A DNA stretch of 64,000 bases, from the NCBI GenBank assembly GCA_030765065.1, contig CM060989.1, positions 39,051,501-39,115,500 on the forward strand. The letters are read 5' to 3'. The DNA comes from Deroplatys truncata (taxonomy: Eukaryota; Arthropoda; Insecta; Mantodea; Mantidae). Made by a program: the position numbers and the translations under genes. The stretch's first letter is position 1. The number at the start of each line of letters is the position of its first letter. The notes under the pieces were generated by a model that worked only from the letters and a program-made list of their open reading frames with translations, was not told the origin of the DNA and did no database searches. Below are positions 2,093-62,077 of this stretch, one piece after another.

Positions 2093-3148
2093 TTATTTCT
2101 CAACATAGTCTCCTTTCAATTCAATACATCTTGTCCAACGAGTCTCCAATTTTTTTAACCGTTCCAAAAATTATGATTTTTCGAAGTCTGCAAAATATGA
2201 GGTTGTTTCTGTCATGATGTGTTCACTGGACGTGAATTTCTTCTCAGCGAGCCAATTTTTCAGGTTTGCGAAGAGGAAGAAGTCGCTCGGAGCCAAATCT
2301 GGAGAATATGGTGGGTGAGGTAGCAGTTCGTAGCCCAATTCCACAAATTTTGCTATGGCAATGGCTGACTTGTGTGCGGGTGCATTATCCTGGTGAAAGA
2401 AAACATTTTTCTTCAAGAAATTGGGTCGTTTCTTTAATAATTCCTTGTGAAATTGATCCAGCATTGCAGCATAATATGAACCTTTGATCGTTTTACCCTT
2501 TTCCAGGTACTGGATGTATATCAACCCTTCTAAATCCCAAAAGACAACTGCCATGCTTTTTCCTGCCGACGGAATGGTTTTCGTTTTCTTTGGAGGAGGT
2601 TCGCCGAAGGAAATCCACTGCTTTGATTGTTGTTTGGTTTCAGATTGACAATAATGGATCCAAGTTTCATCAACCGTGATATAACGCCGCAAAAACTCAT
2701 TTGGGTTGCGCTGGAACATGTTCAACCATCCCTGTGAAATGGTCCCACGATTCCGCTTGTTCTCATCTATGACTAGTCGCGGCATCCATCTTGCTGACAG
2801 CTTCCTCATACCCGAAAGTTCGTGCAGAATGTTATACACCCGTTCACTCGAATTGTTTACGGTCTTGGCTATCTCACAGATTTTCACTTGGCAGTCATCC
2901 AACACATTATCGCGAACTTTGTTCACCATTTCTTCTGTTGTGACCTCAACCGGCCGTCTGTGGGCACGGCATCTCTTGTGCTCGAACAACCACATCGAAA
3001 TTCTGTGAACCACCTGCGAACTATGCCATGTGATGGAGCAGTGTCCCCATAATACTTGTTCACTTTTTCTTCCGTTTCCTTCACCATCTTACCATGCAAA
3101 AAGTAGTGCTTTACCAGAATACGAAATTGACTTTTCTCTATTTTCTAT
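2093..3148 (-). pseudogene. Mariner transposase, broken
   Basis: The main open frame (2171-3013) carries a helix-turn-helix region, VDETWIHY with the first catalytic Asp, HQDNAPAH with the second, and YSPDLAPSDFFLF with the third. Thirty-four residues separate the second and third Asp, the D34D hallmark of mariner. The N-terminus (KHYFLHGKM...PSHGIVRRWFTEF) is in another frame, so there is a frameshift near 2955. The initiator position reads ATA. A TAA at about 2171 cuts the normal C-terminus, which continues in frame to CIELKGDYVEK and a stop at 2093. The catalytic residues are intact but the gene is dead. It is near full family length (about 345 residues). Confidence 0.9.
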
Positions 3149-6650: not shown

Positions 6651-7051
6651 CTAGAACATGTTCACTGTATCGAATTTGAGGCAATATTTTATATCATAAC
6701 ACGCTGTGAATGCCAAAGTGATTGTAGTGTAAATTAATATTATTGTATGTACAGGATTTTAGATGTTTGTTAGCCATAAGTATTGTTAGGAAATAAGTTT
6801 ACACGGTCTCACTGAAACTGACAATAGAAGTGGGTAACAATAAACCGAGGGGGTGAGTTGTTTATCACTAAGAAGAGATAAACAAATGACGTCAGGGTAG
6901 CGTGCCTTTTTTTAGAAATGGAGGGAATATCTTCCCTAGAGTATATATGTTAGTAGTAGTGACTGGCTGACCAAAACAGACGCTAAAGTGGGCGCGATTT
7001 GGTAACCAATAGCAGCTCTATTATAATGTTTAGGCAACTCGAGGTGAAGGA

Positions 7052-7060
7052 GTATATATT
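7052..7060 (+). promoter_or_regulatory. LTR TATA box
   Basis: GTATATATT sits at the same relative place in solo LTR 1 as GTATATATT in copy 3, TATAAAAAG in copy 2 and GTATAAATT (minus strand) in copy 4. Confidence 0.65.
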
Positions 7061-7333
7061 CTCGAGCCATACCCACGTTTCGCGCAGTTTGGAAGAACCT
7101 CTCACGAGGTGAACGTCACAGAGTTCGAAGAGTCTCTCACGAGGTACACGTCGCACAGTTCTGAAGAATCTCTCGCGAGGTAAACGTCGCAGAGTTAGTT
7201 ACAAAAATGTAAAGTACGCGAAGTAATTGGTGCGCGGCAACTAAAACGACTGTAGTTACATTCGGAAATATCACAGATTCAGTCAGGCGTGTATAAAGGT
7301 TAAATATGTCAATTATTAATTAAGTGTGACAGC

Positions 7334-10010: not shown

Positions 10011-10800
10011 TTTTACTTTCTCTACTACGTATAGTAAGTAGGGGAAGTATTGTATTCCACCCAAAAACTCGATACCGAGATTTCGCCGGAAATACATGTT
10101 TTGAGACCCCCTGAATCCAAAAAAAGCGACACGAAGGTTTTCAAGAAAATCCCCCTCCCCAGATTACCCTTTACATGCAAGATTTTTCGAAAATTTTAAT
10201 TTTCTCAAAAATGGCTCTAACGATTTTGATTAAAATATCATATGTTTAAGATATTTTTATGACAAATAAAATGTATATCTTGAATTTCCTGGGAATGCCT
10301 CCAAAAGTATTCTTCATTGTGAACGACTTTTGCATAACTGGTAAACCGTAAGAGATAGACAGAATTTTACTACACAAAAAATGTAGATCGCGTTAAAATA
10401 CACAATTTATGTCATATACATTTTTGTTGTTGAGTGAACCATTTTGGAGATATTGGTTGTTATTCCCTTAAGTTTTTCAATACTTATTTTCTCAAATGGG
10501 AATTCGTTATTCATTTTTTTGTCTTGGATATGCAAAGAGTATTAATCTGTGGGAAAGGGAATGGTGCTGCACCTAGCAACCAGCTATTAAGAGATATGTA
10601 TGTGCTTAAAGGCTACTGTATTTCCAAATTGCCCTTGTAAATATATATTCCCCTTACATCTACAAGAAAATTAGCAATAAGATAGACTCTGCAAATGTTT
10701 ATCTCGATTAACATGAAGTAGATGGAGAATAATCGTTTGTATAAATAGTTTGTACAAGAGTATAGAAAGTCATGCGAGTGTAACGCATGAGATTTTTTTA
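10011..10800 (+). mobile_element. Family H, F orientation, near full length
   Basis: It starts TTTTACTTTCTCTACTACGT, with the inverted 12-mer ACTTTCTCTACT and hairpin CTACT/AGTAG. It ends in a degenerate form of AGTAGAGAAAGT, then CATGCGAGTGTAACGCATGA and a T run. The central GT block is deleted in this copy. Confidence 0.85.
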
Positions 10801-13770: not shown

Positions 13771-14620
13771 TTTTACTTTCTCTACTACGTATAGTAAGTA
13801 GGGGAAGTATTGTATTCCACCCAAAAATTCGATACCGAGATTTCACCGGAAATATATGTTTTGAAACCCCCTGAATCCAAAAAAAAGCATTTTTGGAAAC
13901 ATGTCCGTGTGTGTGTGTGTCTGTGAACAGCATAACTCAGAAACGAACAGTCGTATAAACACCGAACATGGTATTTAGGTTCAGCATCTTCCAGAGATGC
14001 GAGACGAAGGTTTTCAAGAAAATCCCCCACCCCAGATTACCCTTTACATGGAACATTTTTCGAAAATTTTAATTTTCTCAAAAATGGCTCTAGCGATTTT
14101 GATTAAAATATCATATGTTTAAGATATTTTCATGACAAATGAAATGTATATCTCGAATTTTCTGGGAATGTCTCCAAAAGTATTCTTCATTGTGAACGAC
14201 TTTTGCATAACTGGTAAACCATAAGAGCTAGACAAAATTTTACTACACAAAAAATGTAGATCGGTTAAAATACAGAATTTATGTCATATACTTTTTTTTT
14301 TTTGTTGTTGAGTGAACCATTTTCGAGATATTACTTGTTATTCCCTTAAATTTTCCAATACTTATACTTTTTCTCAAATTCGTTATTCATTTTTTTTTGT
14401 CCTGGAAATACAAAGAGAATGGAATACTACACATAGCAATCACCTCTTAAAATATTTGACTATCGCTTAAAGCCTACCATACTCCCCTTGCACCTACAAG
14501 AAAATTAGCAATAAGATTAACATGTCGATTAACATGAAGCATATGGAGAATAAGCGTTTGTAAAAATAGTTTGTACAAGAGTAGAGAAAGTCATGTGAGT
14601 GTAACACTTCATATTTTTTC
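13771..14620 (+). mobile_element. Family H reference copy, F orientation, full length
   Basis: An 850 bp complete copy. In order: ACTTTCTCTACT with hairpin CTACT...AGTAG; GGGGAAGTATTGTATTCCAC; a GT microsatellite (about 13906-13925); a CCCCACCCCAGATTACCC block; internal T runs (about 14290 and 14390); the inverted 12-mer AGTAGAGAAAGT; the stem-loop segment CATGTGAGTGTAAC; and a T run. No protein-like frame on either strand. See findings for the rolling-circle interpretation. Confidence 0.85.
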
Positions 14621-21275: not shown

Positions 21276-21621
21276 GACAATTTTTTTATTCACATAGCCC
21301 AATAATTTTTAGAGCGGATTTCATATTATGATTTTCCCCATTATAAAGACAACACACAGGAACCACGGATGTCGTTTTGATTCTCGCAACACCTGGTTGA
21401 ACAGAGCGGCGTGCCGTATGGTTCCGCTCCCTATCTCTTCTGTTTGGATACACTCTCAACTTCCGTTCTGTTTTAACTTCAGCTTCGTCCTGCTGTCACG
21501 ATTTTAGGATTTCTCTGCCTCTTTTCAGAGCAAACATTTCAGTCAGAAATCAACATTTATATAGGCGTTAGGTATAAATTACACCCATTTTTACCTTCTT
21601 TATTTTTCAATTCGACCCAAA
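21276..21621. other. No gene recognised
   Basis: No supported feature between the family H fragment and solo LTR 2. Confidence 0.5.
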
Positions 21622-21625
21622 AATT

Positions 21626-22486
21626 TGATGCAGTAATTTGTATCACAAATTATGTAAATGTTAAGAGTGATTGCAGTGTGAATATGCATTGTTGTGTGAC
21701 ATTGATTTTAGATGTTTGTTGATTGTAAGCATTGTCGAGAAGTAAGTTTATACGGCCTTACTGAAACTGACAATAATAGCGTGCAATAATGTAGCGAGGG
21801 GGTGAACTGTTTATCATTATTAGAGACGAGCAAATGACGTAATATTGGCGCGTTTTTCTTAGAATTTGCTGGAACATTTTTTCCTAGAGCATATGTTTTC
21901 GTAATTTTCATTGGATATAAAAATAGACGCTAATGTTGGCGCGTTTTATTAACCAATAGCAGCTCGGTTATAATCTTTAGGCATATCGGGGTGTGGGAGT
22001 ATAAAAAGAGCTAAGTCAGAGGTAGATCCCTCTCAGTTCATCGGAAACATTTGTACATTACACGTCGCTCCCAGTCCATCGGAAACATTTGTGCATTACA
22101 CGTCGCTGAATACATCGCACAGTTTATCGATTCGCAGGTTACGCGTAGCAAAGTTATAAAAAAAATCTCAAGTGTTGTAAAGTTAATTACACAAAAAGTT
22201 GAAGTACGCGAATTAAGAATGAGCAGTAAATAAGTTATTATAACAGTTTCAGTTTGGCGAGTGTCAAGATTAATATGTGAGAGTAAATAATGTGTTCGAC
22301 AATAAAAGTGTAAAACAAATTCTTTCATCAGTGTTATCTTTGGATAAAAGACTCCTTTCCGTTTACACATCTGTATAAGAGAAGTGCTCGAACAAAAAGA
22401 TCATAGCTAGCCGGAGGACAGTGAACCCAAAATATTAAATACAATAATAGGCGCTCAGTAAAAGATAACACGAAGTGACCGCGACA
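21626..22486 (+). mobile_element. Solo LTR 2 (861 bp)
   Basis: The most diverged of the four LTR copies. The ends TGATGC...CCGCGACA are flanked by the exact duplication AATT (21622-21625, 22487-22490). TATAAAAAG is at about 22000 and AATAAA at 22301-22306. Two tandem units of about 35 bp (CATCGGAAACATTTG...) lie between them. The ORFs inside (for example 22038-22370) are incidental. Confidence 0.85.
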
Positions 22487-22622: not shown

Positions 22623-23165
22623 GTCGAGAATTCACCAAAAAATACACGTTTTGAGGCCTCTGAATCAAAAAAGGCATTTAAAACATATTTGCATAACAAA
22701 TAAAACGTATATCTTCAATTTTCTGGGAATAGACTGTGAAGTTCTCTTCATTCTGAATGACTTTTGCATCAACCCTAGGAGGTAAACAAAATCTTACTAC
22801 AGACAAAAATGTATATCGTTAATGGCAAATAATATTTTGGTGGTGTTAACATGTCATACAAATATCTTACACTTATGGTATTTTAACCAAAATCGTTAGG
22901 TATCTTTGAGAAAATATAAAATAACGAAAAACTCCCCATGTAAACCTTAGCTTTGGTTGGGGGGATCTTTTTCGAAATCTTCGTGTTGCATTCTTTAACC
23001 AACTTTTCACGGACACACACATACACATTTATCTAAAGCCTATTTTCGTATTCAAAGGACATCAAAACGTATATTTCCATTGAAGTCTCCGTATTAAATT
23101 TGTGGATGGAATGCAATATTTCCTCTGCCTGTTTTAGGTAAGCAGTACAGAAGGTAATAAAAAAA
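22623..23165. mobile_element. Family H, fold-back copy
   Basis: 22623 to about 22850 reads in F orientation from the TTTTGAGGCC segment inwards. About 22850-23165 reads in R orientation, ending near the hairpin end. It is an inverted pair sharing the central region. Confidence 0.65.
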
Positions 23166-23166
23166 T

Positions 23167-23388
23167 TTGATGTGTTACACTCACATGACTTTCTCTACTC
23201 TTGTACAAACTATTTTTACAAACGCTTATTCTCCATATGGTTCATGTTAATCGAGATGTTAATCTTATTGCTAATTTTCTTGTAGATGCAAGGTCAATTG
23301 GTAGGCTTTAAGCGATAGACAAATATTTTAAGAGCTGGTTGCTATGTGGAGTATTCCATTCTCTTTGCATTACCAGGACATAAAAAAA
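23167..23388 (-). mobile_element. Family H, tandem partial head (222 bp)
   Basis: The R head runs TTGATGTGTTACACTCACAT ... TTGCATTACCAGGACAT, then an A run, immediately followed by another complete R copy. The break is at the internal A run. The same partial unit with the same break occurs at 45736-45966. Confidence 0.8.
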
Positions 23389-24210
23389 TCTGATGTGTTA
23401 CACTCACATGACTTTCTCTACTCTTGTACAAACTATTGTTACAAACGCTTATTTTCCATATGCTTCATGTTAATCGAGATATCGAGATGTTAATCTTATT
23501 GCTAATATTCTTGTAGATGCAAGGGGAATTGGCTTTAAGCGTTTAAGAACTGGTTGCAATGTGGAGTATTCCATTCTCTTTGCATTAGCAGGACAAAAAA
23601 AATTAATAACGAATTTGAGAAAAAACATTAGTAAATTTAAGGAAATAACAAGCAATATCTCGAAAATGGTTCACTCAACAAAAAACAAATGTATACGACA
23701 TAAATTGTGTATTTTAACGCGATCTACATTTTTTGTGTAGTAACATTTTATCTATCTCTTATGGTTTACCAGTTATGCAAAAGTCGTTCACAATAAAGAA
23801 CACTTTTGGAGACATTCCCAGAAAATTCAAGATATACATTTTATTTGTCATAAAAATATCTTAAACATATGATATTTTAATCAAAATCGTTAGAGCCATT
23901 TTTGAGAAAATTAAAATTTTCGAAAAATGTTCCATGTAAAGGGTAGTCTGGGGTGAGGGATTTTTTTGAAAACCTTCGTGTCGCATCTCTAGAAGATACT
24001 GAACCTAAATACCAAGTTTGGTGTTTATCCGACTGTTCGTTTCTGAGTTATGCTGTTCACAGACACACACACACGGACATGTTTCCAAAAATGCATTTTT
24101 TGGATTCAGGGGGTCTCAAAACATATATTTCCGGTGAAATCTCGGTATCGAATTTTTGGGTGGAATACAATACTTCCCCTACTTACTATACGTAGCAGAG
24201 AAAGTAAAAA
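23389..24210 (-). mobile_element. Family H, R orientation, full length
   Basis: Complete copy from TCTGATGTGTTACACTCACA to ACTATACGTAGCAGAGAAAGTA, with internal (CA)n at about 24063-24074. Confidence 0.88.
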
Positions 24211-27130: not shown

Positions 27131-27266
27131 ATCTGATGCGTTGCACCCAAATGACTCTCCGCTCACCGTCTACAAACTATTCTTTCAAACCCTCATTCTC
27201 CCATTTACTTCTTATTAATACAGATAAACCCTCATTATCATTCACACATTTCGTTGTAAGCACAAA
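27131..27266 (-). mobile_element. Family H head, truncated (third of an array)
   Basis: An R head ATCTGATGCGTTGCACCCAA, truncated at TTCGTTGTAAGCACAAAAAA. The next head follows directly. Confidence 0.7.
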
Positions 27267-27270
27267 AAAA

Positions 27271-28960
27271 TCTGATGTCTTGTACTCGTATGACATTCTC
27301 TAATCTTGTACCAAGTATTTTTACAACGGCTTAATGTCCATCCACTTCATTTTAAACAAGATAATCATTTGCAGAAACTATCTTATTGCTAATTTTCTTG
27401 TAGATGCAAGGGGAATATGGTAGACTTTAAGCGATAGTCAAATCCTTAAGAGCTGGTTGCTATGTGGAGCATTCCATTCTCTTTGTATGTCCAAGAGATA
27501 TTAAAATAAGGGGGAAGAAGAAGAAGCGAATAACGAATTCTCATGTGAAAAAACCTATAAGTACTGAAAAATTCAAACATATAACAAAGAATATCTCTGA
27601 AATGGTTCACTCGACCCCTAAAATAAGTATATGGCATACATTGTGTATTTTAACGAGATCTACAGTTTTTGGTGTAGTAAAATTTTGTCTATCTCTTACG
27701 GTTTTCCAGTTTATGCAAAAGTCATTCAGAATGAAGAGGACTTTTGGGGACATTCCCAGAAAATTCATCAGATACATTTCACTTGCCATGAAAATATCAT
27801 ATGATGTTTTAATTAAAATCATTAGAGCCATTTTTGAGAAAATCAAAAATTTCGAAACATGTTCCAAGTAAAGGGTAGTCTGGAGGGGGGATTTTCTTGA
27901 AAATGTTCGTGTCGCATATTTAAAGATACTGAACCTAGATGCCAAGTTTGGTATTTTTCCGACTTTTCGTTTTTGAGTTATGCTGTTAACAGACACCGCA
28001 TGGACCTTTTTCTAAAAATGCTTTTTTTACTTTCCCTACTTCGTATAGTAAGTAAGAGAAGTATTGTATTCCACCCATAAATTCGATATCGAGATTTCAC
28101 CGGAAATACATGTTTTGAGACCCCCTGAATAAAAAAAAAGGATTTTTGGAAGCATGTCTGTGTGTGTGACTGTGAACAGCATAACTCAGAAACGAACATT
28201 CGGATAAACAGCAAACTTGGTATTTAGGTTCAGTATCTTCCAGAGATGCGACACGAAGGTTTTCAAGAAAATTCCCCCACCCCAGACTACCCTTTACATG
28301 GAACATTTTTCGAAAATTTATTTTTCTCAAAAATGGCTCTAACGATTTTGATTAAAATATCATATGTTTAAGACAAATGAAATGTATATCTCGAATTTTC
28401 TGGGAATGTCTCCAAAAGTATTCTTCATTGTGAACGACCTTTGCATAACTGGTAAACCATAAGAGATAGACAAAAGTTTACTACACAAAAAATGTAGATC
28501 GCGTTAAAATACACAATTTATGTCATATACGTTATTTTTGTTGAGTGAACCATTTTCGAGATATTGCTTGTTATTCCTTTAAATTTTCCAATACTTATAC
28601 TTTTTCTCAAATTCGTTATTCATTTTCTTTCTCCTGGTAATGCAAAGAGAATGGAATACTCCACATAGCAACCAACTCTTAAAATATTTGACTATAGCTT
28701 AAAGCCTACCATATTCCCCTTACAGCTACAAGAAAATTAGTAACAAGATTAACATCTCGATATCTCGATTGACATGAAGCATATGGAGAATAAGCGTTTC
28801 TAAAAATAGTTTGTACAAGAGTAGAGAAAGCCATGTGAGTGTAACACATAAGATGTTTTTTACTCAGGGCACCTCAAAACATTTCCGGTGAAATCTCGAT
28901 ATAGAATTTTTGGGTGTAATGTAATACTTCCCCTACTTATACGTAGTAGAGAAACAAAAA
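27271..28960 (-). mobile_element. Family H, R orientation, split by another family H copy
   Basis: The R copy runs from TCTGATGTCTTGTACTCGTA to about 28027 (CTAAAAATGCTTTTTTT). It resumes at 28861 with CTCAGGGCACCTCAAAACAT and reaches the ACGTAGTAGAGAAA end at 28960. The gap is exactly filled by the opposite-strand copy below. Confidence 0.8.
28028..28860 (+). mobile_element. Family H, F orientation, inserted into an older R copy
   Basis: A full copy from TTACTTTCCCTACTTCGTAT to GTAACACATAAGATG plus a T run. Its insertion point is the T run before GGATTCAGGG of the host copy, showing a preference for T/A runs. Confidence 0.85.
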
Positions 28961-29788: not shown

Positions 29789-31043
29789 CACTACGTGATC
29801 AAAAGTATCCGGGCACCTGGTCGAAAATGACGTACAAGTTCGTGGCGTCCTCCATCGATAATGCTGGAAGTCAATATGGTGTTGGCCCACCCTTAGCCTT
29901 GATGACAGCGTTCACTCTCGCAGGCATACTTTCAATCAGGTGCTTGAAGGTTTCTTGGGGAATGGCAGCCCATTCTTCACGGAGTGCGGAACTGAGGAGA
30001 GGTATCGATGTAGGTCGACGAGGCGTGGCACGAAGTCGGCGTTCCAAAACATCCCAAAGGTGTTCTATAGGATTCAAGTCAGGACTCTGTGCAGGCCAGT
30101 CCATTACAGGGATGTTATTGTCGTGTAACCACTCCGCCACAGCCCGTGCAGTATGAACAGGGGCTCGAAGGTGTTGAAAGATGCAATCGCCATCCTCGAA
30201 TTGCTCTTCAACAGTGGGAAGCAACAAGGTGCTTAAAATATGAATGTAGGTCTGCGCTGTGATCGTGCCACGCAAAACAACAAGGGGTGTAAGCCCCCTC
30301 CAGGAAAAACACGACCACACCATAACACCACCACCACCTCCAAATTTCACTGTTGGCACTACACACGCTGGCAGATGACGTTCACCGGGCATTCGCCATA
30401 CCCATACTCTGCCATCGGATCGCCACATTGTGTACCTACCGTGATTCGTCACTCCACACAACGTTTTGCCACTGTTCAATCGTGTAATGTTGACGCTCCT
30501 TACACCAAGCGAGACGTCGTTTGGCATTTTCTTGCGTGATGTGTGGCTTATGAGCAGCTGCTCGACCATGGAATCCAAAGTTTCTCACATCACGCCTAAC
30601 TGTCATAGTACTTGGAGTGGATCCTGATGCAGTTTAGAATTCCTGTGTGATAGTCTGGATAGATGTCTGCCTATTACTCTTTACGGCCCTCTTCAAATGT
30701 CGGCGGTCTCTGTCAGAAAACAGACGAGGTCGGCCTGTACGGTTTTGTACTGTACATGTCCCTTCACGTTTCCACTTCACTATCACATCAGAAACAGTGG
30801 ACCTAGGGATGTTTAGGAGTGTGGAAATCTCGCGTACAGACTTCTGACACAAGTGACACCAAATCACCTGATCACGTTCGAAGTCCGGGAGTTCCACGGA
30901 GCGTCCCATTCTGCTGTTTCACGATGTCTAATGACTACTGAGGTCGCGGATAATGAATACCAGGCAGTAGGTGGCAGCATAATGCACCCAAGAAGAAAAA
31001 CGTATGCTTGTGGGGGCGTCCGGATACTTTTGATCACATAGTG
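29789..31043 (-). mobile_element. Tc1 element (1255 bp), complete but dead
   Basis: The ends CACTACGTGATCAAAAGTAT and ACTTTTGATCACATAGTG are inverted repeats with TA on both sides (29787-29788, 31044-31045). MITE-2 copy 2 shows the empty site as ...CCCCACCTATTAGTTCC, which proves the TA duplication. The transposase is on the minus strand. Confidence 0.95.
29871..30909 (-). pseudogene. Tc1 transposase, broken
   Basis: The N-terminal frame (30909-30634) carries the paired-like DNA-binding region (VREISTLLNIPRSTVSDVIV) and a GRPR-type motif (GRPRLFSDRDRRH). The second frame (30578-29871) carries SDGRVWVWRMPGER, the long GGGGGVMVWSCFS box and SPDLNPIEHLWDVLE with the catalytic Glu. The first Asp motif WSDESR is out of frame, just before this part. 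The second Asp is replaced: the motif reads FQHLRAPVHTA, with Leu at the Asp position. Thirty-four residues separate that site from the Glu, the DD34E arrangement of Tc1. Frameshifts plus catalytic loss make it inactive. Confidence 0.92.
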
Positions 31044-36605: not shown

Positions 36606-36940
36606 TTTTGCTCTTTCATCACAGTTTTATTTAGTTTCATTATAAAATAACTTCCATCCATGCGATTGCGGTTTCTCATATATCCTTTATGATATGTTGT
36701 TTTTCCAAGGTATCATATTCGCCAATGGTCATTCACCTTGATCATCGGTTAACATGGCATAGCCACATCAACACTAAAGTCAATCAGGCATATTCTCCTC
36801 TCGTGCAATAGGAAGAGAGAGTTGGTATGGGAAAATGTGTGCGAAGAAATCTGCACGAGCAATATTTGGCTATTAGATAAAAACAATAATAGTGGTTTTG
36901 GAAAGACGTGAGAATCAGGATGGAAGACATTGAGAAAAAA
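36606..36940. other. No gene recognised
   Basis: Sequence after the hAT target duplication. No supported feature. Confidence 0.5.
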
Positions 36941-37778
36941 TCTGATGTGTTACACTCACATGACTTTCTCCACTTGTACAAACTATTTTTACAAACGCTT
37001 ATTCTCCATATGCTTCATGTTAATCGAGATGTTAATCTAATTGCTAATTTTCTTGTAGATGCAAGGGGAATATGGTAGGCTTCAAGCGACAGTCAAATAT
37101 TTTAAGAGCTGGTTGCTATGTGGAGTATTCCATTCTCTTTGCATTACCAGGACATAAAAAAAATGAATAACGAATTCCCATTTGGGAAAAAGTATAAGTA
37201 CTGGAAATTTTAAGGGAATAACAACAGTATCTCGAAAATGGTTCACTCAACAAAAAAAGTGTATATGACATAAATTGTGTATTTTAACGCAATCTACATT
37301 TTTTGTGTAATAAAATTTTGTCTATCTCTTATGGTTTACCAGTTATACAAAAGTCGTTCACAATGAAGAATACTTTTGGAGACATTCTCAGAAAATTCGA
37401 GATACACATTTCACTTGTCAAGAAAATATCTTAAACATATGATATTTTAATCAAAATCATTAGAGCCGTTTTTGAGAAAATTAAAATTTTCGAAAAATGT
37501 TCGATGTAAAGGGTAATCTGGGGTGAGGAATTTTCTTGAAAACCTTCGTGTCGCATCTCTGGAAGATACTGAACCTAAATACCAAGTTTGGTGTCTATCC
37601 GACTGTTTTTTTCCTGAGTTATGCTGTTCACAGACACCCACACGGACATGTTTCCAAAAATGCTTTTTTTGGATTCAGGGGGTCTCAAAGCATGTATTTC
37701 CGGTGAAATCTCGGTATCGAATTTTTGGGTGGAATACAATACTTCCCCTACTTACTATACGTAGAGGAGAAAGTAAAA
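36941..37778 (-). mobile_element. Family H, R orientation, full length
   Basis: From TCTGATGTGTTACACTCACA to CTATACGTAGAGGAGAAAGT. About 838 bp, and close to the 13771 and 23389 copies. Confidence 0.88.
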
Positions 37779-38291: not shown

Positions 38292-39569
38292 CGAGAGCAG
38301 TCCCAGAAGAACCCGACCTGGCGTATATACAGCGGTTGTTGTTTCAAACAAATGACTATGGTAGAGAGTACCACCCTTATAAAGCTTAAGTTTGAAGTTT
38401 GACGATGCTACGTTGTTTAGTAATTGTTTGGCAGCCATTAATAGCGAACTCTCTCTGCGAATTTGTAAACATGGATAAAACTGGTCATCGTTATGTGATA
38501 CAATACTTTCATTTGAAAGTCTTAGTCCAACTAATATTAAAGCTGAGCTAGATTCTACTCTGGGGGAGTCTGCTCCTTCGTTTACAACAGTAAAATATTG
38601 GATGGCAGAGTTTAAGCGAGGCCGTACGAGCTGCCAAGACGAACATAGCAGTGGTCAACCAAATGAGCTGACCACGCCAGAAATTGTGAGGAAAATCCAC
38701 AAAATGGTATTGCATGACTGTCGACTGAAACTGCGCGAGCTAGCAGACATCGTAGGCATTTCAAAAAGTGCTGTACATCGCACACTACTTAAAAATTTAG
38801 ACATGAGAAAGCTGTGCGCAAGATGGGTGACGCGTTTACTCACAATGGAACAAAAGCAGCATCGTGAGGATGTTTCAGTCGAGTGTTTGGCGATGTTTCG
38901 CTGCAATAAAGCGAGTTTTTGCGTCGATTCATAACCATGGATGAAACATGGGCCATCACTTCACACCTGAGACGAAGGAACAGTCAAAACAGTGAATTGA
39001 AAAGGGAGAATCGCTCCAAAGAAGGCGAAGACAGTTCCATCCATGGAGTCAGTGTTTTGAGATGCACGTGGGAAAATTCTCATTGATTATCTTCAAAAAG
39101 GAAAAGTAATCAACGGCGAGTATTATGCAAACTTATTGCAGCGTTTGAATGATGAAATCAAGCAAAAACGGCCGCATTTAGCGAAAAAGAAATTCTGTTC
39201 CATCAAGACAATGCACCAGTTCACACATCCATTATCGTCATGGCCAAAATCAATGAGTTAAGGTTCGAATTGCTTCCTCATGCACCCTATTCACCAGATT
39301 TAGCCCTCTCTGAATATTTTCTATTTCCAAAGTTGAAGAAATAGCTTGGTGCTAAATGATTTTCCATCAGTGAAGAGCAGGAGTCTGTAGTTGATGGCTA
39401 TTTTTCAGAACTCGATGTTTCTCAGTATAAACAGGGTATCGAAGCTATTGAACATCGCTGGGAAAAGTGTATCGAGCTGAAAGGAGACTATGTAGAGAAA
39501 TAAAGATGTTTTTTCCCCAAACCTTTTGCGTTTTCTTTGTTATGTCGGGTACTTCTGGGACAGCCCTCG
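38292..39569 (+). mobile_element. Mariner element (1278 bp), copy 1 of a family
   Basis: The left end CGAGAGCAGTCCCAGAAGAA matches the right end read on the other strand, CGAGGGCTGTCCCAGAAGTA. TA follows the right end (39570-39571). A sister copy is at about 46705-47968. Confidence 0.85.
38471..39503 (+). pseudogene. Mariner transposase, broken
   Basis: Starts MDKTGHRYVIQYF. An N-terminal helix-turn-helix and linker run through frame 38602-38934 (TTPEIVRKIHKMVLHDC, KLRELADIVGISKSAVHRTL). A shift near 38925 breaks the FLRRF segment, so TMDETW reads out of frame. Later parts (DYLQKGKVINGEYYANLL, HLAKKK, HQDNAPVHTS-like) are spread over frames. It ends EHRWEKCIELKGDYVEK at the stop 39503. The 46 kb sister is better in the middle but not in the N-terminus. 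The gene is inactive. Confidence 0.87.
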
Positions 39570-40134: not shown

Positions 40135-41015
40135 CGAGGGCTGATCAACAAAGACTGAGACTGATTTTTTTTCACAATGTTTATTACTCCAATTCAATGT
40201 TTACATGATCTTTTTCAAAGTAGTCCCTTCCTACTTCAATGCACTTTTTATAGCGTCTCTGCCAGTCCTTGAACACGTGCTGCAGACCACTCTTTGTCAG
40301 GTCCTTGAGAATCGCCTCACTTTTCTTGAGCACTGCTTCAGAGTTCTCAAATCGAATACCCCTAAGCTTTGCCTTTAGTGATGGGAATAAAAAAATGTCA
40401 CAGGGTGCAAGATCGGGGCTATAAGGTGGATGTGGTACACAGATAATGTTGAATAGAGCCAGAAACTGCATGACTTGATTTATGACGTGAGGCCGTGCAT
40501 TGTCATGATGAAGTCGCCACCCAGTCCGAGAAAGCTCTTGTCGTTTCTTTGTAATGTGCTTCCTCAGTGTAGCCAATACTGACGTGTAGTATGCTGCTGT
40601 AACAGTAGTGTGAGGGGGAACTGCATGCTGGTAAATCATTCCATCACAGTCAAAAAATGTGATCACTATCACTTTCCCTGCAGATGGAACAACTTTTGCC
40701 TTTTATGGTGTTGGAGAACCTGGCGATTTCCACATTGTGCTGGCTTGTTTTCCTTCAGGATCATAATGATGCAGCCATGACTCCTCACCGGTGATAATCG
40801 ATTTAAAAAATGCATCACCTCCATTGTCTGGTGTGCGAAATGCACGTAGGTCTACAAAATAGAGCATTACTACCAACCTACCAATACGAGAGTGCTGCCG
40901 CCTACCAACAGTATACATTAAAACCCGCTCTTTTCAAATATTTATGTTACAGATACGAAACTATCACGGAAGCTACAGGAAAAAATCAGTCTCAGTCTTT
41001 GTTGATCAGCCCTCG
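40135..41015 (-). mobile_element. Mariner element (881 bp), internally deleted
   Basis: The ends CGAGGGCTGATCAACAAAGA and TCTTTGTTGATCAGCCCTCG are perfect inverted repeats, extending over about 37 bp. TA lies on both sides (40133-40134, 41016-41017). About 0.4 kb is missing from the N-terminal side. Confidence 0.95.
40184..40918 (-). pseudogene. Mariner transposase, N-terminally deleted
   Basis: The minus frame 40918-40703 has SIITGEESWLHHYDPEGKQA; the catalytic Asp of GDESW is Glu here. A TAA follows PGSPTP. The same frame continues as KAKVVPSAGK and from 40672 onwards, with HHDNARPH (second Asp), PHPPYSPDLAPCDIFLFP (third Asp, 34 residues later) and a mariner C-terminus. One in-frame stop, one catalytic change and loss of the DNA-binding domain make it non-functional. 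Confidence 0.9.
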
Positions 41016-42046: not shown

Positions 42047-43312
42047 CGAGGGGCACTATTTACATTTTGAGCCTTGGCAACGCTGAATGTTTTAGGTGCC
42101 ATCTGACGTTTCTAATGGAAAATGTGACATTTTTTTACCATAATCTACTTCAAACATTTTTTCAATAGAGCGTCATTTGTTTTCTTTACACTAACTTGAA
42201 AGTTGTGTGTCAACAAATACATGGAATTAACTTGTGAAAATTTTCATGCAATGATTTATTACGACTTTCGACGTAGATTATCAAGACAAGAGTGCATCGA
42301 TCAACCAACTTCCACATTTGGCGACGAAGCTTCATCCTTTGCCACTATGAAACGCTGGTATAACGAATTTAATCGTGGCCGCCGTTCGCTCAATGATGAA
42401 GTTCGTGAAGGTCGTCCAAAATTAGTTGTGCCAGAAAATATTGATGCTGTGCAAAAACTAATAATGAAAGATCGTCATGCAACATATGGTGAGATTGAGG
42501 CAACCCTAGGGATTAGTTCCACCAGCATATACAAAATATTGCATAATTATTTAGCCGTGAACAGGTTTGCTCTCGTTGGATCCCACATAATTTGACGCAA
42601 TCTCAAAAAGATGCCCGTGTCGATTGGTGTACAAAAATGCTCAAGAAATGCAATGGCGGTGCCTCAAAAGACGTATATAAGATTGTAACAGGTGATTAAT
42701 CATGGATCAATGCGTATGAGTCGGAACGTAAACAGCAGTCGACTGTATGGTTGTTTCAAGATGAATCAAATTCAACAAAAGTTGTTCGCACTCGAAGCAC
42801 TTCGAAGCAAATGGTCGCTGCTTTTTCAGTAAAACTGGCCATGTGGCAACAGTGCCTTTAGAGGAACGTAAAACGGTCAATGCCGAATGGTACACAACCA
42901 TTTGTTTGTCGGAAGACTTCGGTGAAGTAAGGAAAACCAACAAGAACCGTAGGATCGTTCTTCATCAAGACAATGCGAGCGAACACACATCTCGTCTAAC
43001 AACAGAGTATTTGAAGGCTCAAAAAATCGAATTGATGGGTCATCCGCCATACAGTCCAGATTTGGCACCCAATGACTTCTTTTTGTTCCCGAACATCAAG
43101 AATAAATTGCGTGGAAAACGATTTTCGTTGGCAGAAGAAGCCGTTGATGCCTTCAAAAATTATGTTTTGGAGGTGTCTCAAGAAGACTGGAATAAATGCT
43201 TTGACAAATGGTTCAAACGGATGCAAAAGTGTAATGATCATAAAGGAGAATACTTTTAAAAACAATAAAGCAGTTTTAGTTATTAGGCTCAAAATAAAAA
43301 TAGTGCCCCTTG
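42047..43312 (+). mobile_element. Mariner element (1266 bp), complete ends
   Basis: The ends CGAGGGGCACTATTTACATT and (other strand) CAAGGGGCACTATTTTTATT are flanked by TA (42045-42046, 43313-43314). It has full family length and is the best preserved mariner in the window apart from that at 1977. Confidence 0.95.
42221..43259 (+). pseudogene. Mariner transposase, few disabling changes
   Basis: I chose the ATG at 42221 (MELTCENFHAMIYYDF) rather than 42203, because family members start close to this point. The DNA-binding domain is open to about 42590 (WYNEFNRGRRSLNDEVREGR; ATLGISSTSIYKILH). A frameshift follows near 42560. In the shifted frame the first catalytic site is GD-stop-SW, where TAA replaces the Glu codon right after the Asp. 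From 42843 the frame is open again: HQDNASEH, GHPPYSPDLAPNDFFLFP (34 residues between Asp) and MQKCNDHKGEYF at the stop. All three catalytic Asp codons survive. Confidence 0.92.
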
Positions 43313-44150: not shown

Positions 44151-45114
44151 TATGTTACAAATGTTGGAAGGTACAAAATTAACCTACGTCCTTAGATATC
44201 GAAGTCTTTGAACCAGAAAAAAATTATTACATACATTTGTTCATTAACATTGTTCACAGAATTCATTAATAAGTCAGGAATTCACGCCTTTGGGCCCCAT
44301 TATGCAGTCATTTAGGCCTTTGGGGGAACGTATTTAAGGGTATTTAAGGGGTTTGTTTTCAAAATTTTGGCACATACTGCATAACCTCAATCAAATGTTT
44401 CAAGTTTTATACAGGTATCTTTAATATTTTTGAGAAAAAAAACATTAATTATGCAAATTACTCAGCTGTTTCACGCTACATATAAGTCGTAATTTTGAAA
44501 AAAACAAACATAAATACTACCACATTTAAATACTAATGTACAAAACTGGCATACAGAATTTTATTCAATACTCTGGTTCTCTAAGGAAAAAACTTAAAAC
44601 CTTTAAATACATTTTTTAGACAGCATGACCTAAAAGTAAAACTTCTAACACAGAGCACATGAGCTAAAAGCTTTAAACTGGGACCAACTTTGGTTTCAAG
44701 TCACATGACAATTACCCTTTGTATTTGAAATGTTTAATAACTCGACTTGATTTGATTAGGTTTTACTTTTCATTATGTCATTTTACATGATTGATTTCTC
44801 AAGGCGCTCGCATTATCTGTTCAAAAATCTCATACTTCAATTTATCGTAATTCGTTGCAGAGTTAACATATGCGTTATATTGGCAGCTTTTTTATGTTTA
44901 AAACGCTATTCTTTTATCTAACCTACATAAAGATTAAATGGCAGAAATTATGAACTCAGAAGAAACTGAAATGGAAGTGAAATCACAGAAGCAGTAGAAG
45001 GAATAAGACTAGAAGTACTTCCACAAAAAATCCAGAAAATAATATGATAGCATTTAATCGCCTGGGGAAGGTAAAACAAGGTGAAAATTTCCTCGAAAAT
45101 AACTGCTAGCGAAT
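44151..45114. other. No gene recognised
   Basis: AT-rich non-coding sequence. Confidence 0.5.
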
Positions 45115-45735
45115 CAACAAAAATTCGATACCGAGATTTCACCGGAAATACATGTTTTGAGACCCCCTGAATCCAAAAAAAGCATTTTTAGAAACATGTC
45201 CGTGTGTGTGTGTGTCTGTCTGTGTGTATCATATGTTTAAGATATTTTATGACAAATAAAATGTATATCTGGAATTTTCTGGGAATGTCTCCAAATGTAT
45301 TCTTCATTGTGAACGACTTTTGCATAACTGGTAAACCATAAGAGATAGACAAAATTTTACTACACAAAAAATGCAGATCGCGTTAAAATACACAATTTAT
45401 GTCATATACATTTTTTTTTGAGTGAACCATTTTCGAGATATTGCTTGTTATTCCCTTTAATTTTCCAATACTTATACTTTTTCTCAAATTCGTTATTCAT
45501 TATTTTTTTGTCCTGGTAATGCAAAGAGAATGGAATACTCCACAAAGCAACCAGCTCTTAAAATATTTGATTATAGTTTAAAGCCTACCATATTCCCCTT
45601 GCATCTAAGGAAAATTAGCAATAAGATTAACATCTCGATATTTCGATTAACATGAAGCATATGGGGAATAAGCGTTTGTAAAAATAGTTTGTACAAGAGT
45701 AGAAAAAGTCATGCGAGTGTCACACATAAGATTTT
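45115..45735 (+). mobile_element. Family H, F orientation, start and centre deleted
   Basis: Begins inside the element at AAAATTCGATACCGAGATTT. The GT microsatellite (45204-45230) joins directly to ATCATATGTTTAAGAT. The end GCGAGTGTCACACATAAGAT is complete. Confidence 0.8.
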
Positions 45736-45966
45736 TTGTCCTGGTAATGCAAAGAGAATGGAATACTCCACATAGCAACCAGCTCTTAAAATATTTGACT
45801 ATAACTTAAAGCCTACCAATTCCCCTTGCATCTACAAGAAAATTATCAATAAGATTAACATCTCGATATCTCGATTAACATGAAGCATATGGAGAAAAAG
45901 CGTTTGTAAAAATAGTTTGTACAAGAGTAGAGAAAGTCATGTGAGTGTAACACATCAGATTTTTTA
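45736..45966 (+). mobile_element. Family H, tandem partial tail (231 bp)
   Basis: Directly after the previous copy. It starts TTTTGTCCTGGTAATGC at the internal T run and ends GTAACACATCAGATTTTTT. It mirrors the unit at 23167-23388. Confidence 0.82.
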
Positions 45967-51047: not shown

Positions 51048-52535
51048 CCTAACGCCATCTGCACGGCACGAAGCAGAAGATCCAACTGCAAGATGGCATC
51101 TCCAGAGACCTAGAAGGCTAACCGCCTTTCCGTGTGGGGGCGGCGGTTGGACTGGACGGCACCCTAATGCCATCTGCACGGCATGAAGCAGTAGTTACAG
51201 GGATGAGACCTACAAGGTTAACTGTCCGCCTTTCTGTGTGAGGGCGGCGGTTGGACTGAACGGCACCCTAATGCCATCTGTACGGCAGACAATGAGACCT
51301 ACAAGGTTAACTGTCCGCCTTTCTGTGTGAGGGCGGCGGTTGGACTGAACGGCACCCTAATGCCATCTGCACGGTATGAAGCAGTAGTTACAGGGATGAG
51401 ACCTACAAGGTTAACTGTCCGCCTTTCTGTGTGAGGGCGGCGGTTGGACTGGACGGCACCCTAATGCCATCTGTACGGCAGACAATGAGACCTACAAGGT
51501 TAACTGTCCGCCTTTCTGTGTGAGGGCGGCGGTTGGACTGAACGGCACCCTAATGCCATCTGCACGGTATGAAGCAGTAGTTACAGGGATGAGACCTACA
51601 AGGTTAACTGTCCGCCTTTCTGTGTGAGGGCGGCGGTTGGACTGAACGGCACCCTAATGCCATCTGCACGGTATGAAGCAGTAGTTACAGGGATGAGACC
51701 TACAAGGTTAACTGTCCGCCTTTCTGTGTGAGGGCGGCGGTTGGACTGAACGGCACCCTAATGCCATCTGTACGGCAGACAATGAGACCTAGAAGGTTAA
51801 CTGTCCGCCTTTCTGTGTGAGGGCGGCGGTTGGACTGGACGGCACCCTAATGCCATCTGTACGGCAGACAATGAGACCTAGAAGGTTAACTGTCCGCCTT
51901 TCTGTGTGAGGGCGGCGGTTGGACTGGACGGCACCCTAATGCCATCTGTACGGCAGACAATGAGACCTAGAAGGTTAACTGTCCGCCTTTCTGTGTGAGG
52001 GCGGCGGTTGGACTGAACGGCACCCTAATGCCATCTGCACGGTATGAAGCAGTAGTTACAGGGATGAGACCTACAAGGTTAACTGTCCGCCTTTCTGTGT
52101 GAGGGCGGCGGTTGGACTGGACGGCACCCTAATGCCATCTGTACGGCAGACAATGAGACCTAGAAGGTTAACTGTCCGCCTTTCTGTGTGAGGGCGGCGG
52201 TTGGACTGGACGGCACCCTAATGTCATCTGCACGGCAGACAATGAGACCTAGAAGGTTAACTGTTCGCCTTTCTGTGTGAGGGCGGCGGTTGGACTGGAC
52301 GGCACCCTAATGCCGTGTGCACGGCACGAAACATTCGGTCTCTGCGACACCTGACGGAGCGGGTGGTTACAGGAATGAGACCTAGAAGGCTAACTGTCCG
52401 CCTTTATATGGGGCGGCGGTTGGACTGGACGGCACCCTAATGCCGTGTGCACGGCAGGAAACATTCGGTCTCTGTACACCTGACGGAGCGGGTTGTTGCA
52501 GGGATGAGACCTAGAAAACTAACCGCCCATCACAT
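51048..52535. repeat. GC-rich minisatellite with two alternating unit lengths
   Basis: About 15 units, each with GGCACCCTAATGC and GTGTGAGGGCGGCGGTTGG. Measured between successive GGCACCCTAATGC starts (51158, 51262, 51351, 51455, 51544, 51648, 51752, 51841, 51930, 52019, 52123, 52212, 52301, 52431) the spacings are 104, 89, 104, 89, 104, 104, 89, 89, 89, 104, 89, 89 and 130. The 104 bp unit has an extra GTATGAAGCAGTAGTTACAG-type insert. The outer units are more diverged. No coding role is seen. Confidence 0.95.
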
Positions 52536-57314: not shown

Positions 57315-57318
57315 TTTT

Positions 57319-58164
57319 TGAGGCAGTATTTTAATCACAACACTGAATGCCAGAGTGATTGTAGTGTAAATTAACATTATTGTATGACAATGATTTTAGA
57401 TGTTTGTTAGCCATAAGCATTGTTAGGAAATACGTTTACACGGCCTCACTGAAACTGACAATAGAGTGGATAACAATGAACCGAAGGGGTGAGTTATTTA
57501 TCACTAAGAAGAGACAAACAAATGACGTCAGGGTAGTGTGCCTTTCTTTAGAAATGGAGGAAATATTTTCCCTAGAGCATATGTGTTAATAATTGTGATT
57601 GGCTGACAAAACAGACGCTAATGTTGGCGCTATTTGGTAACCAATAGCAGCTCTATTATGTTTAGGCATTTCGGGGAGGAGTATATATTCCGGAGCTATA
57701 AGCATGTTTCGCACAGTTCTAAGCAATCTCCGCGAGGTACACATCACGCAGTTCTACAGAATCATTCACGAGGTACACGTCGCGCAGTTCTAAGGAATCT
57801 TGCGTGGAGTGCACGTCATACAGTTTGGAAGAATCTCTCGCGTCGTAAAGTTGGTTACAAAATGTGAAGTACGCGGCAACTAATACGATAGTAATTACAT
57901 TCGGAAATATAACAGTTTCAGTCAGGCGTGTATCAAGATTAAAGATGTGAAATTAATTGTGACGGCAATAAAAGTGTAAAAACAAATTCTTTCATCAGTG
58001 TTATCTTTTAGTAACAACTCCTTTCCGTTTACACGCCCTGCTCAGAGATATTTGCTCGACTGAGTAATAATAGCTAGCCGGAGGACAAAGAACCCAAATT
58101 TAAACATAATAAAACAATAATAGGCGCCAAGCAAATAAGATAACACGAGCCGATTACCGCGACA
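57319..58164 (+). mobile_element. Solo LTR 3 (846 bp)
   Basis: TGAGGC...CCGCGACA flanked by TTTT (57315-57318, 58165-58168). TATA box at 57681-57689, AATAAA at 57967-57972. Three to four tandem units of about 35 bp lie between (57712-57850). It is close to solo LTR 1 along its length. Confidence 0.88.
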
Positions 58165-60419: not shown

Positions 60420-61216
60420 TGTCGCGGTATCGTTCGTGTTATCTTATTTACTGAGCGCCTGTTGTGTATTACTAGTTTGAATTTTGGGTTCTTTGTCCTC
60501 CGGCTAGCTATTATTACAAGTCGAGCAAATCTCTTAAACAGGGCGTGTAAACGGAAAGGAGCTGTTACTAAAAGATAACACTGATAAAAGAATTTGTTTT
60601 TACACTTTTATTGCCGTCACACTTTATTCATTTCACATAATTACTCTTGATACACGCCCGACTGAATCTGTTATATTTTCGAATGTAACTATAATCACTT
60701 ATTTGCCGCACATTCTTAATTCGCGTATTTCACATTTTTGTAACTAACTTTACGACGCGAGAGATTCTGTAGAATTGCGCAACGTGTAACCCGTGAATGA
60801 TTCTCTTAAACTGTGTGTTACCCGTCTCTGGCAGGGAATTTATACTCCCTCACCCCGATATGCCTAAACATTATAATCGAGCTTCTATTGGTTAATAAAG
60901 CGCGCCAACATTAGCGTCTATTTTATATCCAATCAAAATTACGAACACATATGCTCTAGGGAAGATATTCCCTCCATTTCTAAAGAAAAGCGCGCTACTC
61001 TGACGTCATTTGTTTGTCTCTTCTAATTAATAAACAACTCACCCCCTCGTTTCATTGTTACCCGCTCCTATTGTCAGTTTCAGTGAGGCCGTGTAAACTT
61101 ATTTCCTAACAATGCTTATAATTAACAAACATCTCAAATCAATGTCATACAATAATGTTAATTTACACTACAATCACTCTGGCATTCACAGTGTTGTGAT
61201 ATAAAATACTGCCTCA
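60420..61216 (-). mobile_element. Solo LTR 4 (797 bp), minus strand
   Basis: Reads TGTCGCGG...GCCTCA on plus, flanked by ATTG (60416-60419, 61217-61220). Minus-strand TATA box at about 60837-60845 and AATAAA at 60607-60612. Only about two of the tandem units of about 35 bp remain, which accounts for much of its shorter length. Confidence 0.88.
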
Positions 61217-61220
61217 ATTG

Positions 61221-62077
61221 TATGCTATTACAGCCAACAAATATGTTGGTAGATGTGTCAGGTGTTGGAATTCTAAATTTCCTTCTGTGTAGGTAAATAT
61301 CATCGAGAAAACGCAGGAAACACACGATCGTGCAGAAAAGTTAATGGATTTCATGCTATTCCACAGGAATAAACACACATAAAACTGACATCTTCGCTTT
61401 ATGCATTAGATTATTCTTCGGAATATTACCCGACCTTGCTCTCGATGACAAAAATCGAAAATCACTTAACAGGCGCGTGCGCCCAGCTAGGTCTAGCAAA
61501 CCGTCGCTCAGAATTATGATAATGAAGCAGTCAAGCAAAGGGTGACAGTAAATAAATGATCAAAGCAGGTTAAGTAAACCTTTTCTCGCTTAGAAAACGC
61601 AATTCTTTTGGCAGCCACTGCTACTGAGATTTTAGACAACAGTTGTCATGGAAACACGAGGGAAACAGAATTGATCCACCATTTGACAATTCTCCCGTAC
61701 TTTTTGAGCTCTGGGGGAGTGACAATTCTGGTATCCAGACACCAGTATTATAAACATGGGATCGATTGGCGGAAGTCAAATTAATAAAATAATCACAAGC
61801 CCTACTTTTTCCTGCTGGTTTGCTTCCCCGGGACCCAACAGAACAGTGGATGTCACCTTGGCCAACCACATTATTAATGAGCCAGTCAAACCCGTGTAAA
61901 CAAGGATATTAGTAAAGTCGTTTATTCATTTCAGTCTTACAAACTTGACAAATATGATAGGGACGTTTTGGGAAAGAACACTGAGATTCTCAGATCACTG
62001 CAATTAAAATTACGTCAGGTTTAGAAGTCTACGAATATTGTACAGTCGGTCCAACTAAAAGTGGCCATCTCCAAGGT
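61221..62077. other. No gene recognised
   Basis: The frames 61356-61538 and 61621-61869 have no domain. Confidence 0.5.

What the first reader, a model, noticed from the sequence alone, without database searches (positions are those of the whole stretch)
13771..14620. Family H: abundant non-coding element with Helentron/HINE-like architecture
Seen: about 27 segments from roughly 20 insertions between 1.2 and 63 kb, on both strands. A full copy is about 0.85 kb. One end starts at ACTTTCTCTACT. The inverse AGTAGAGAAAGT lies about 30 bp inside the other end and is followed by the stem-loop segment CATGTGAGTGTAAC and a T run. A GT microsatellite sits in the centre, and there is no coding frame. 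Known: HINE/DINE-1-type elements have subterminal inverted repeats placed asymmetrically, a 3' stem-loop, a central simple-repeat core and T-rich targets. Inference: family H may be a lineage of that kind.
Basis: partly seen in the sequence, partly recalled or inferred. Interest (0 to 1): 0.75.

Follow-up and report, generated by a model that had tools for sequence, protein, structure and literature searches.

The report
Non-coding rolling-circle jumping gene family
This is a very common non-coding jumping DNA element that shares both ends with a gene-carrying rolling-circle element in the same genome, which very likely moves it, and that often lands inside its own copies, so that they stack up.

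Summary
Family H is a HINE, a non-coding relative of a Helentron (endonuclease-bearing rolling-circle transposon). Thirty-six related segments cover 20.5% of the window; the genome holds 201,314 exact 5' ends and 238,584 3' ends within 2 mismatches. The joined flanks of the finding's copy match 38 other places without a break, and the empty sites read base by base show T-runs with nothing but Ts gained beside the element. An autonomous partner lies in the same genome: about 10.4 kb, an open 2,324-aa Rep/PIF1-helicase/endonuclease frame, H's 5' leader and H's last ~40 bp. In the four of five partner copies where the start is visible, the 5' end is doubled, as expected if a self-nested composite moved from outer 5' end to inner 3' end. 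That model is in print for Fusarium Helitrons. A new, very abundant member of a known kind.

The parts
13771..14619 (+). full-length H element (HINE) in the finding, with its flanking Ts
   Evidence: (the 40 best-scored copies genome-wide, itself included; the others 90-94% identical)
13775..13786 (+). 5' subterminal inverted repeat ACTTTCTCTACT, directly after the flanking T-run
13775..13808 (+). 5' end hairpin: the subTIR pairs with GTAAGTAGGGGAAGT (a DINE-1-type IR whose 5' arm lies inside the subTIR)
   Evidence: MFE -4.9 kcal/mol, z -2.44, 7 of 200 shuffles as good
13907..13920 (+). GT microsatellite core
14390..14398 (+). internal T-run (9 T), the self-insertion hot spot
14580..14591 (+). 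3' subterminal inverted repeat AGTAGAGAAAGT
14593..14609 (+). 3' palindrome, ATGTG-7 nt-CACTT here (usual form CACAT)
   Evidence: a compensatory pair (ATGCG/CGCAT) in the copy at 10759
14614..14619 (+). 3' terminal T-run, shared with target Ts
44356..44617 (-). paralogous empty site of this copy (186 of 278 columns identical, continuous across the junction)
23161..24208 (-). full-length H followed by an extra H 3' tail starting at the internal T-run (right-side composite)
45227..45964 (+). H copy followed by an extra H 3' tail; the 228-bp tandem unit
36936..37777 (-). full-length H copy
28025..28858 (+). full-length H copy, head to head with an inverse copy at 27266-28032

Best explanation
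Family H is a non-autonomous Helentron (HINE/DINE-1 type). It has no gene of its own. The protein of a Helentron in the same genome recognises the shared ends and nicks at the 5' hairpin end (TACTTTCTCTACT...). It then peels off and copies one strand to the 3' palindrome and T-run (...CACATCAGATTTT), and joins it into a T|T step of a T-run elsewhere. H carries its own internal T-run at a fixed place (element position about 620), so new copies often land inside old ones. Such nests can move again from the outer 5' end to the inner 3' end, which stacks 5' parts. They can also move from the inner 5' end through to the outer 3' end, which stacks tails. Shown: the ends, the empty sites, the partner sharing both ends, the nested junctions, and the doubled 5' end of the partner copies that could be read. 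Inferred: that this partner moves H, the nick and strand-transfer steps, the re-mobilisation of nests, and the exact T|T cut.
For: Ends are sharp in the 30 copies laid out with flanks (chosen as best full-length matches). Empty sites: the joined flanks of the finding's own copy match 38 other genome places as one continuous stretch (38 of 40 scored rows, of 1,419 candidates; the other 2 rows are its own two flanks), and one more in the window. The H copy L008 lies in a repeat whose empty versions are in the window, and an H copy lies inside Helentron copy d where copy a is empty. Partner: 18 of the listed PF14214 hits lie in open frames over 2,000 aa. P0001, one of these, holds Helitron_like_N and PIF1, a C-terminal Exo_endo_phos_2 at 28.2 bits against cut-off 27.4 when that part is scanned alone, and HxH, YxxxY and Walker A motifs. 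The Helentron begins with H's first 630-650 bp (84-91% identical in copies a, b, c, e) and ends with H's last ~40 bp; the last 38 bp average 89% over 16 of 30 H copies. Self-nesting: junction counts; 12 left/right pairs 858-908 bp apart; one read in full.
Against: H is not a simple deletion of the partner: beyond the internal T-run the leader resemblance is weak, and the last 60 bp are only 67% identical on average over 16 of 30 copies. The endonuclease domain is only just over its cut-off and did not appear at E<=0.01 in the scan of the whole protein. The 3' palindrome alone is no more stable than shuffled sequence (z -0.72, and -0.43 in the partner). The number of Ts gained is not constant: 5, 5 and 3 in the three cases counted, and a duplication of Ts only cannot be excluded. 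Movement was not observed. H pairs average 93% identity in the 5' part while partner copies a and b are 98.7% alike, so most H copies read here probably predate the present partner copies.
Confidence: 0.93

Rival explanations
1. H is a MITE moved by a DDE transposase, its inverse repeats being ordinary terminal repeats.
For: It is short, non-coding and abundant with inverse repeats; DINE-1 elements were themselves once called MITEs (PMC4067079, abstract; PMC2374699, search listing). Mariner-like frames lie in the window (named by eye).
Against: The repeats are asymmetric (one at the 5' edge, one about 26 nt plus Ts from the 3' edge). Empty sites read base by base show no duplication apart from Ts. 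A Rep/helicase element shares both ends.
Confidence: 0.02
2. H is a retroposon (SINE-like) whose T-run at the end is a tail and whose tail-only copies are 5' truncations.
For: Tail-only segments exist that start at the internal T-run.
Against: The tail-only segments counted start at one fixed place and follow another 3' end, as nesting predicts. Truncation rates were not measured, since the 30 copies fetched were chosen as best full-length matches. The 5' end is hairpin-forming and shared with a Rep/helicase element.
Confidence: 0.01
3. The doubled 5' parts and repeated tails arose by slippage or unequal crossing-over between T-runs, not by nested insertion followed by mobilisation.
For: Most of the 100 left junctions listed have the same T length, and tail units occur in evenly spaced runs of about 231 bp in the listing, as local tandem growth would give.
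Against: The outer and inner 5' parts of partner copy a are only 93.3% alike, while the same part is 98.4-99.4% alike between a and the other copies, and the two parts fall in different places of the tree. Twelve left/right pairs lie one element apart; one was read and encloses one complete H.
Confidence: 0.25

Closest known systems
HINEs and DINE-1 (Drosophila, mite, Culex; Thomas and Pritham 2014, PMC4067079)
   Same: 12-15 bp subTIRs, one at the 5' edge and one inside the 3' edge; an IR nested in the 5' subTIR; a short 3' palindrome; a microsatellite; T-rich targets; variable terminal Ts; no non-T target duplication; a partner with Rep/helicase/endonuclease.
   Different: H has over 200,000 exact 5' ends here. 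The 3' subTIR lies at or below the short end of the published distance. H and the partner copy compared share under 80% of the last 60 bp, so by that paper's rule they are one family but different subfamilies. H has an internal T-run used as a self-insertion site.
FoHeli elements of Fusarium with multiple 5' termini (PMC5148889)
   Same: Composites with several 5' termini and one 3' terminus, explained there by self-insertion and transposition from the outer 5' end to the first 3' end.
   Different: There the duplicated 5' stretch is typically under 200 bp (passages). Here it is a unit of about 630-650 bp ending at one internal T-run, in about 20,000 junctions, and present in the four autonomous copies that could be read.
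Maize Helitrons with multiple 3' termini (PMC3288121)
   Same: Nested Helitrons re-mobilised to give extra termini.
   Different: Canonical Helitrons with CTAG ends; the internal 3' termini sampled there were nearly all mutated (passages).

Membership tests
Helentron-associated HINE / DINE-1 | subTIRs of about 12-15 bp (family rule: at least 11 identical bp) | tested here: met
   12/12 inverse match in the finding's copy; the partner's 5' subTIR is identical and its 3' subTIR shares 11 bp
Helentron-associated HINE / DINE-1 | asymmetric placing: 5' subTIR at the edge, 3' subTIR well inside | tested here: met
Helentron-associated HINE / DINE-1 | published distances in mites: 2-4 nt from the 5' terminus, 38-60 bp from the 3' terminus | tested here: inconclusive
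   only Ts lie before the 5' subTIR, so its distance cannot be fixed; the 3' distance is about 26 nt plus Ts from the subTIR's end, or about 38 from its start
Helentron-associated HINE / DINE-1 | short palindrome near the 3' end (5-10 bp, 8-35 bp from the end) | tested here: met
   ATGTG/CACAT; all 5 pairs (G-T allowed) in 22 of 30 genome copies and 9 of 18 window 3' ends that passed the filter; the fold alone is weak
Helentron-associated HINE / DINE-1 | IR whose 5' arm lies inside the 5' subTIR (DINE-1) | tested here: met
Helentron-associated HINE / DINE-1 | insertion into T-rich sequence without target duplication | tested here: met
   duplication of Ts only cannot be tested in a T-run
Helentron-associated HINE / DINE-1 | autonomous partner with Rep/helicase plus C-terminal endonuclease sharing both ends | tested here: met
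   the endonuclease is only just over its cut-off
[quoted passage not shown]
   mean 67% over the 16 of 30 H copies with an exact CACATCAGATTTT end; so same family, different subfamily
Helentron-associated HINE / DINE-1 | mobilisation in trans by the Helentron protein | not testable with these tools
   needs an experiment
canonical Helitron | A|T target, 5' TC and 3' CTRR ends | tested here: not met
   T-run targets, ends T-ACTTTC and CAGATTTT (the canonical motif is recalled; CTAG and the AT target also seen in passages of PMC3288121 and PMC5876387)
DDE MITE | fixed-length target duplication and terminal inverted repeats at both edges | tested here: not met
   (a duplication of Ts only cannot be excluded)

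The most novel reading that the evidence does not exclude
The internal T-run is a maintained landing pad. The family grows by landing in itself, and the recently spread autonomous Helentron is itself such a composite with two working 5' ends. Self-nesting followed by outer-5' to inner-3' mobilisation would then be the main route by which this lineage makes new forms.
Probability: 0.3. Interest if true: 0.65.

Novelty: new member of a known kind. Interest (0 to 1): 0.45.

Why it matters
A very large HINE family with a recently spread, open-frame Helentron in the same genome gives very many junctions for testing how endonuclease-bearing rolling-circle elements choose ends and targets. The fixed internal T-run turns self-insertion into something that can be counted, and it suggests a route from a transposon to satellite-like arrays.

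Tried and rejected
MITE and SINE readings were considered and dropped (see rivals). A telomere idea for the 3.4-kb array near the start of contig C1 was dropped: two stretches read there show a 3,409-bp unit with one H copy in each, and the first 2,500 bases of C1 read N, so nothing can be said about the chromosome end. L051 and L048 gave no clean empty site, because their host copies are too diverged. Rfam gave nothing at gathering scores in the window. The endonuclease part had no useful PDB match by sequence (one at E 0.39). The species was not identified; fifteen chromosome-sized contigs plus one over 600 Mb would suit a bush-cricket, but that is recall only, and a paper search with 'katydid' (listing only) told nothing about this genome. 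The closest precedents were found with the searches; no search was made for this element by name.

Full report
Observation. The copy at 13771-14619 has ACTTTCTCTACT at 13775 and its exact inverse at 14580. The window holds 23 matches to this 12-mer with up to one mismatch, where 0.31 are expected. A profile from 30 full-length genome copies finds 36 segments covering 20.5% of the window, and none in three shuffled windows. The window lies in a 4.29-Gb genome of 818 contigs.

Termini. Thirty copies with 1.5 kb of flank were laid out (eight of them aligned, not all in one orientation). They are the best matches to the query, so they are full-length by selection. Similarity starts at a short T-run followed by ACTTTCTCTACT and stops in a T-run after CACATCAGA. 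Where the counts could be read, the left T count runs from 1 to 6 and the right from 2 to 9 (29 and 28 of 30 copies). The 5' edge folds into a hairpin that includes the whole subTIR (z -2.44), as in DINE-1, whose IR lies in the subTIR. The 3' palindrome ATGTG/CACAT is weak by energy alone (z -0.72, and -0.43 in the partner). It keeps all five pairs, G-T allowed, in 22 of 30 genome copies and in 9 of 18 window 3' ends that passed the filter; one window copy (10759) has a compensatory change.

Empty sites. The finding's own copy sits in another repeat. Its joined flanks match window 44617-44356 on the minus strand across the junction (186 of 278 columns). Genome-wide, 40 of 1,419 candidates were scored: 38 rows are single matches running across the junction at 73-78% identity, and the other two rows are the copy's own flanks. 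I could not fetch these 38 letter by letter, so they show an empty site but not its T count. For L008 the empty site reads GCC-T7-AGAAATGG in one window copy and has a C within the T-run in two others; the filled one has T6 on both sides. For Helentron copy d the empty site in copy a has T8 and the filled one T6 and T7. For the finding's copy the window empty site has T7 and the filled one T4 and T6. So five, five and three Ts are gained against these relatives and no other base is duplicated. The simplest reading is T|T insertion of T-ACTTTC...CAGATTTT; Ts alone cannot settle this.

Autonomous partner. A Helitron_like_N search of the genome scored 150 of 291 candidates. Eighteen listed hits lie in open frames of over 2,000 aa. 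Copies a (C9) and b (C4) agree at 98.7% over 10.46 kb. The 2,324-residue frame of copy a (stop to stop, no start codon asked for) holds Herpes_teg_N (a cysteine-protease family by recall; OTU proteases are reported for Helentrons in PMC4067079), DUF6570, Helitron_like_N and PIF1. Its C-terminal part, scanned alone, holds Exo_endo_phos_2 just over the cut-off; the scan of the whole protein did not list it at E<=0.01. HxH at 1146, YxxxY at 1327, Walker A at 1643, GDFNFD and SDHKP are present (their meaning is recalled). Helraiser's helicase part is among the PDB matches. The frame contains a 63-bp coding minisatellite, and 11 of the 18 long frames have lengths equal to 2,324 modulo 21.

Shared ends. 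The partner's 3' end is TGTAGAGAAAGTTATGTGAATGTAACACATCAGATTTTTTT in copies a and b. Its last 38 bp average 89% identity to H and its last 60 bp 67% (16 of 30 H copies, those with an exact CACATCAGATTTT end). Its 5' end begins with H's first 630-650 bp at 84-91% identity in copies a, b, c and e. Past the internal T-run the likeness is weak but above shuffled sequence (82.5 against at most 62.5 in 100 shuffles).

Double 5' end and self-nesting. Upstream parts of five partner copies were read. In the four where the start is visible (a, b, c, e) two H-type 5' parts stand in a row, the outer one stopping at the internal T-run. In d the stretch begins too late to tell. In copy a the outer and inner parts are 93.3% alike, while the same part is 98.4-99.4% alike between a and the other copies. 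In b the whole partner lies in the internal T-run of another H-type copy, whose 5' part is on the left and whose tail is on the right. Genome-wide there are 201,314 exact 5' ends. Of nearly the same kind of end, 19,656 follow the internal T-run flank and 7,468 follow an H-type 3' tail. There are 8,518 3' ends directly before an H tail and 40,213 unoccupied internal T-runs, so 17.5% of tails with that exact flank are occupied. A crude expectation is 0.6%: 201,314 ends over about 31.6 million T-runs of five or more, extrapolated from this one window. The excess is inflated by the spread of composites, as the mostly uniform T5 junctions among the 100 listed suggest, and by local tail runs. On C1, the 100 left junctions listed and the 44 of 100 listed right junctions that lie in the same span were paired: 29 same-strand pairs lie 600-3,500 bp apart, and 12 of these 858-908 bp apart, that is one H apart. 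One was read in full and is a complete H in an H T-run.

Literature. Thomas and Pritham 2014 (PMC4067079: abstract and passages) gives the HINE definition used here. The Fusarium paper (PMC5148889: passages) already proposes that self-insertion followed by transposition from the outer 5' end to the first 3' end gives several 5' termini. The maize paper (PMC3288121: passages) does so for 3' termini. The Helraiser paper (PMC5876387: passages) reports the 3' hairpin as terminator in canonical Helitrons, citing earlier work.

Verdict. H is a HINE with a Helentron partner in the same genome: a new member of a known kind, notable for its number and for the fixed internal insertion site.

Noticed in passing
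L071, L072 (G000:C1:20300-24100 and 119000-123500): Tandem array of a 3,409-bp unit near the start of contig C1, with one full H copy per unit in the two stretches read; the first 2,500 bases of C1 read N.
   Followed up: partly
L039:1542-2465: 63-bp (21-aa) coding minisatellite inside the Helentron frame; frame lengths of many copies differ by multiples of 21 aa.
   Followed up: partly
window 7618, 13203, 24823, 62877: 3' ends with the subTIR variant GGTAGAGAAAGT, more diverged: perhaps an older sister subfamily of H.
   Followed up: no
window 6675-7248, 21618-22003, 57317-57789, 60699-61237: Another repeat family, with 36-bp tandem units at 7080-7196 and 57709-57800, that serves as target for H (L008).
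   Followed up: partly
window 51122-52328: Tandem array with units of about 89, 104 and 193 bp.
   Followed up: no
window 2171-3088 (-), 29871-30584 (-), 38479-38934, 40184-40702 (-), 42765-43259: Mariner- and Tc1-like transposase frames (named by eye, no family search).
   Followed up: no
L009-L013: Other Helitron_like_N hits that score higher than the Helentron of this report (171-196 against about 105 bits), 4 of 5 with a stop inside: other Helitron or Helentron families.
   Followed up: no
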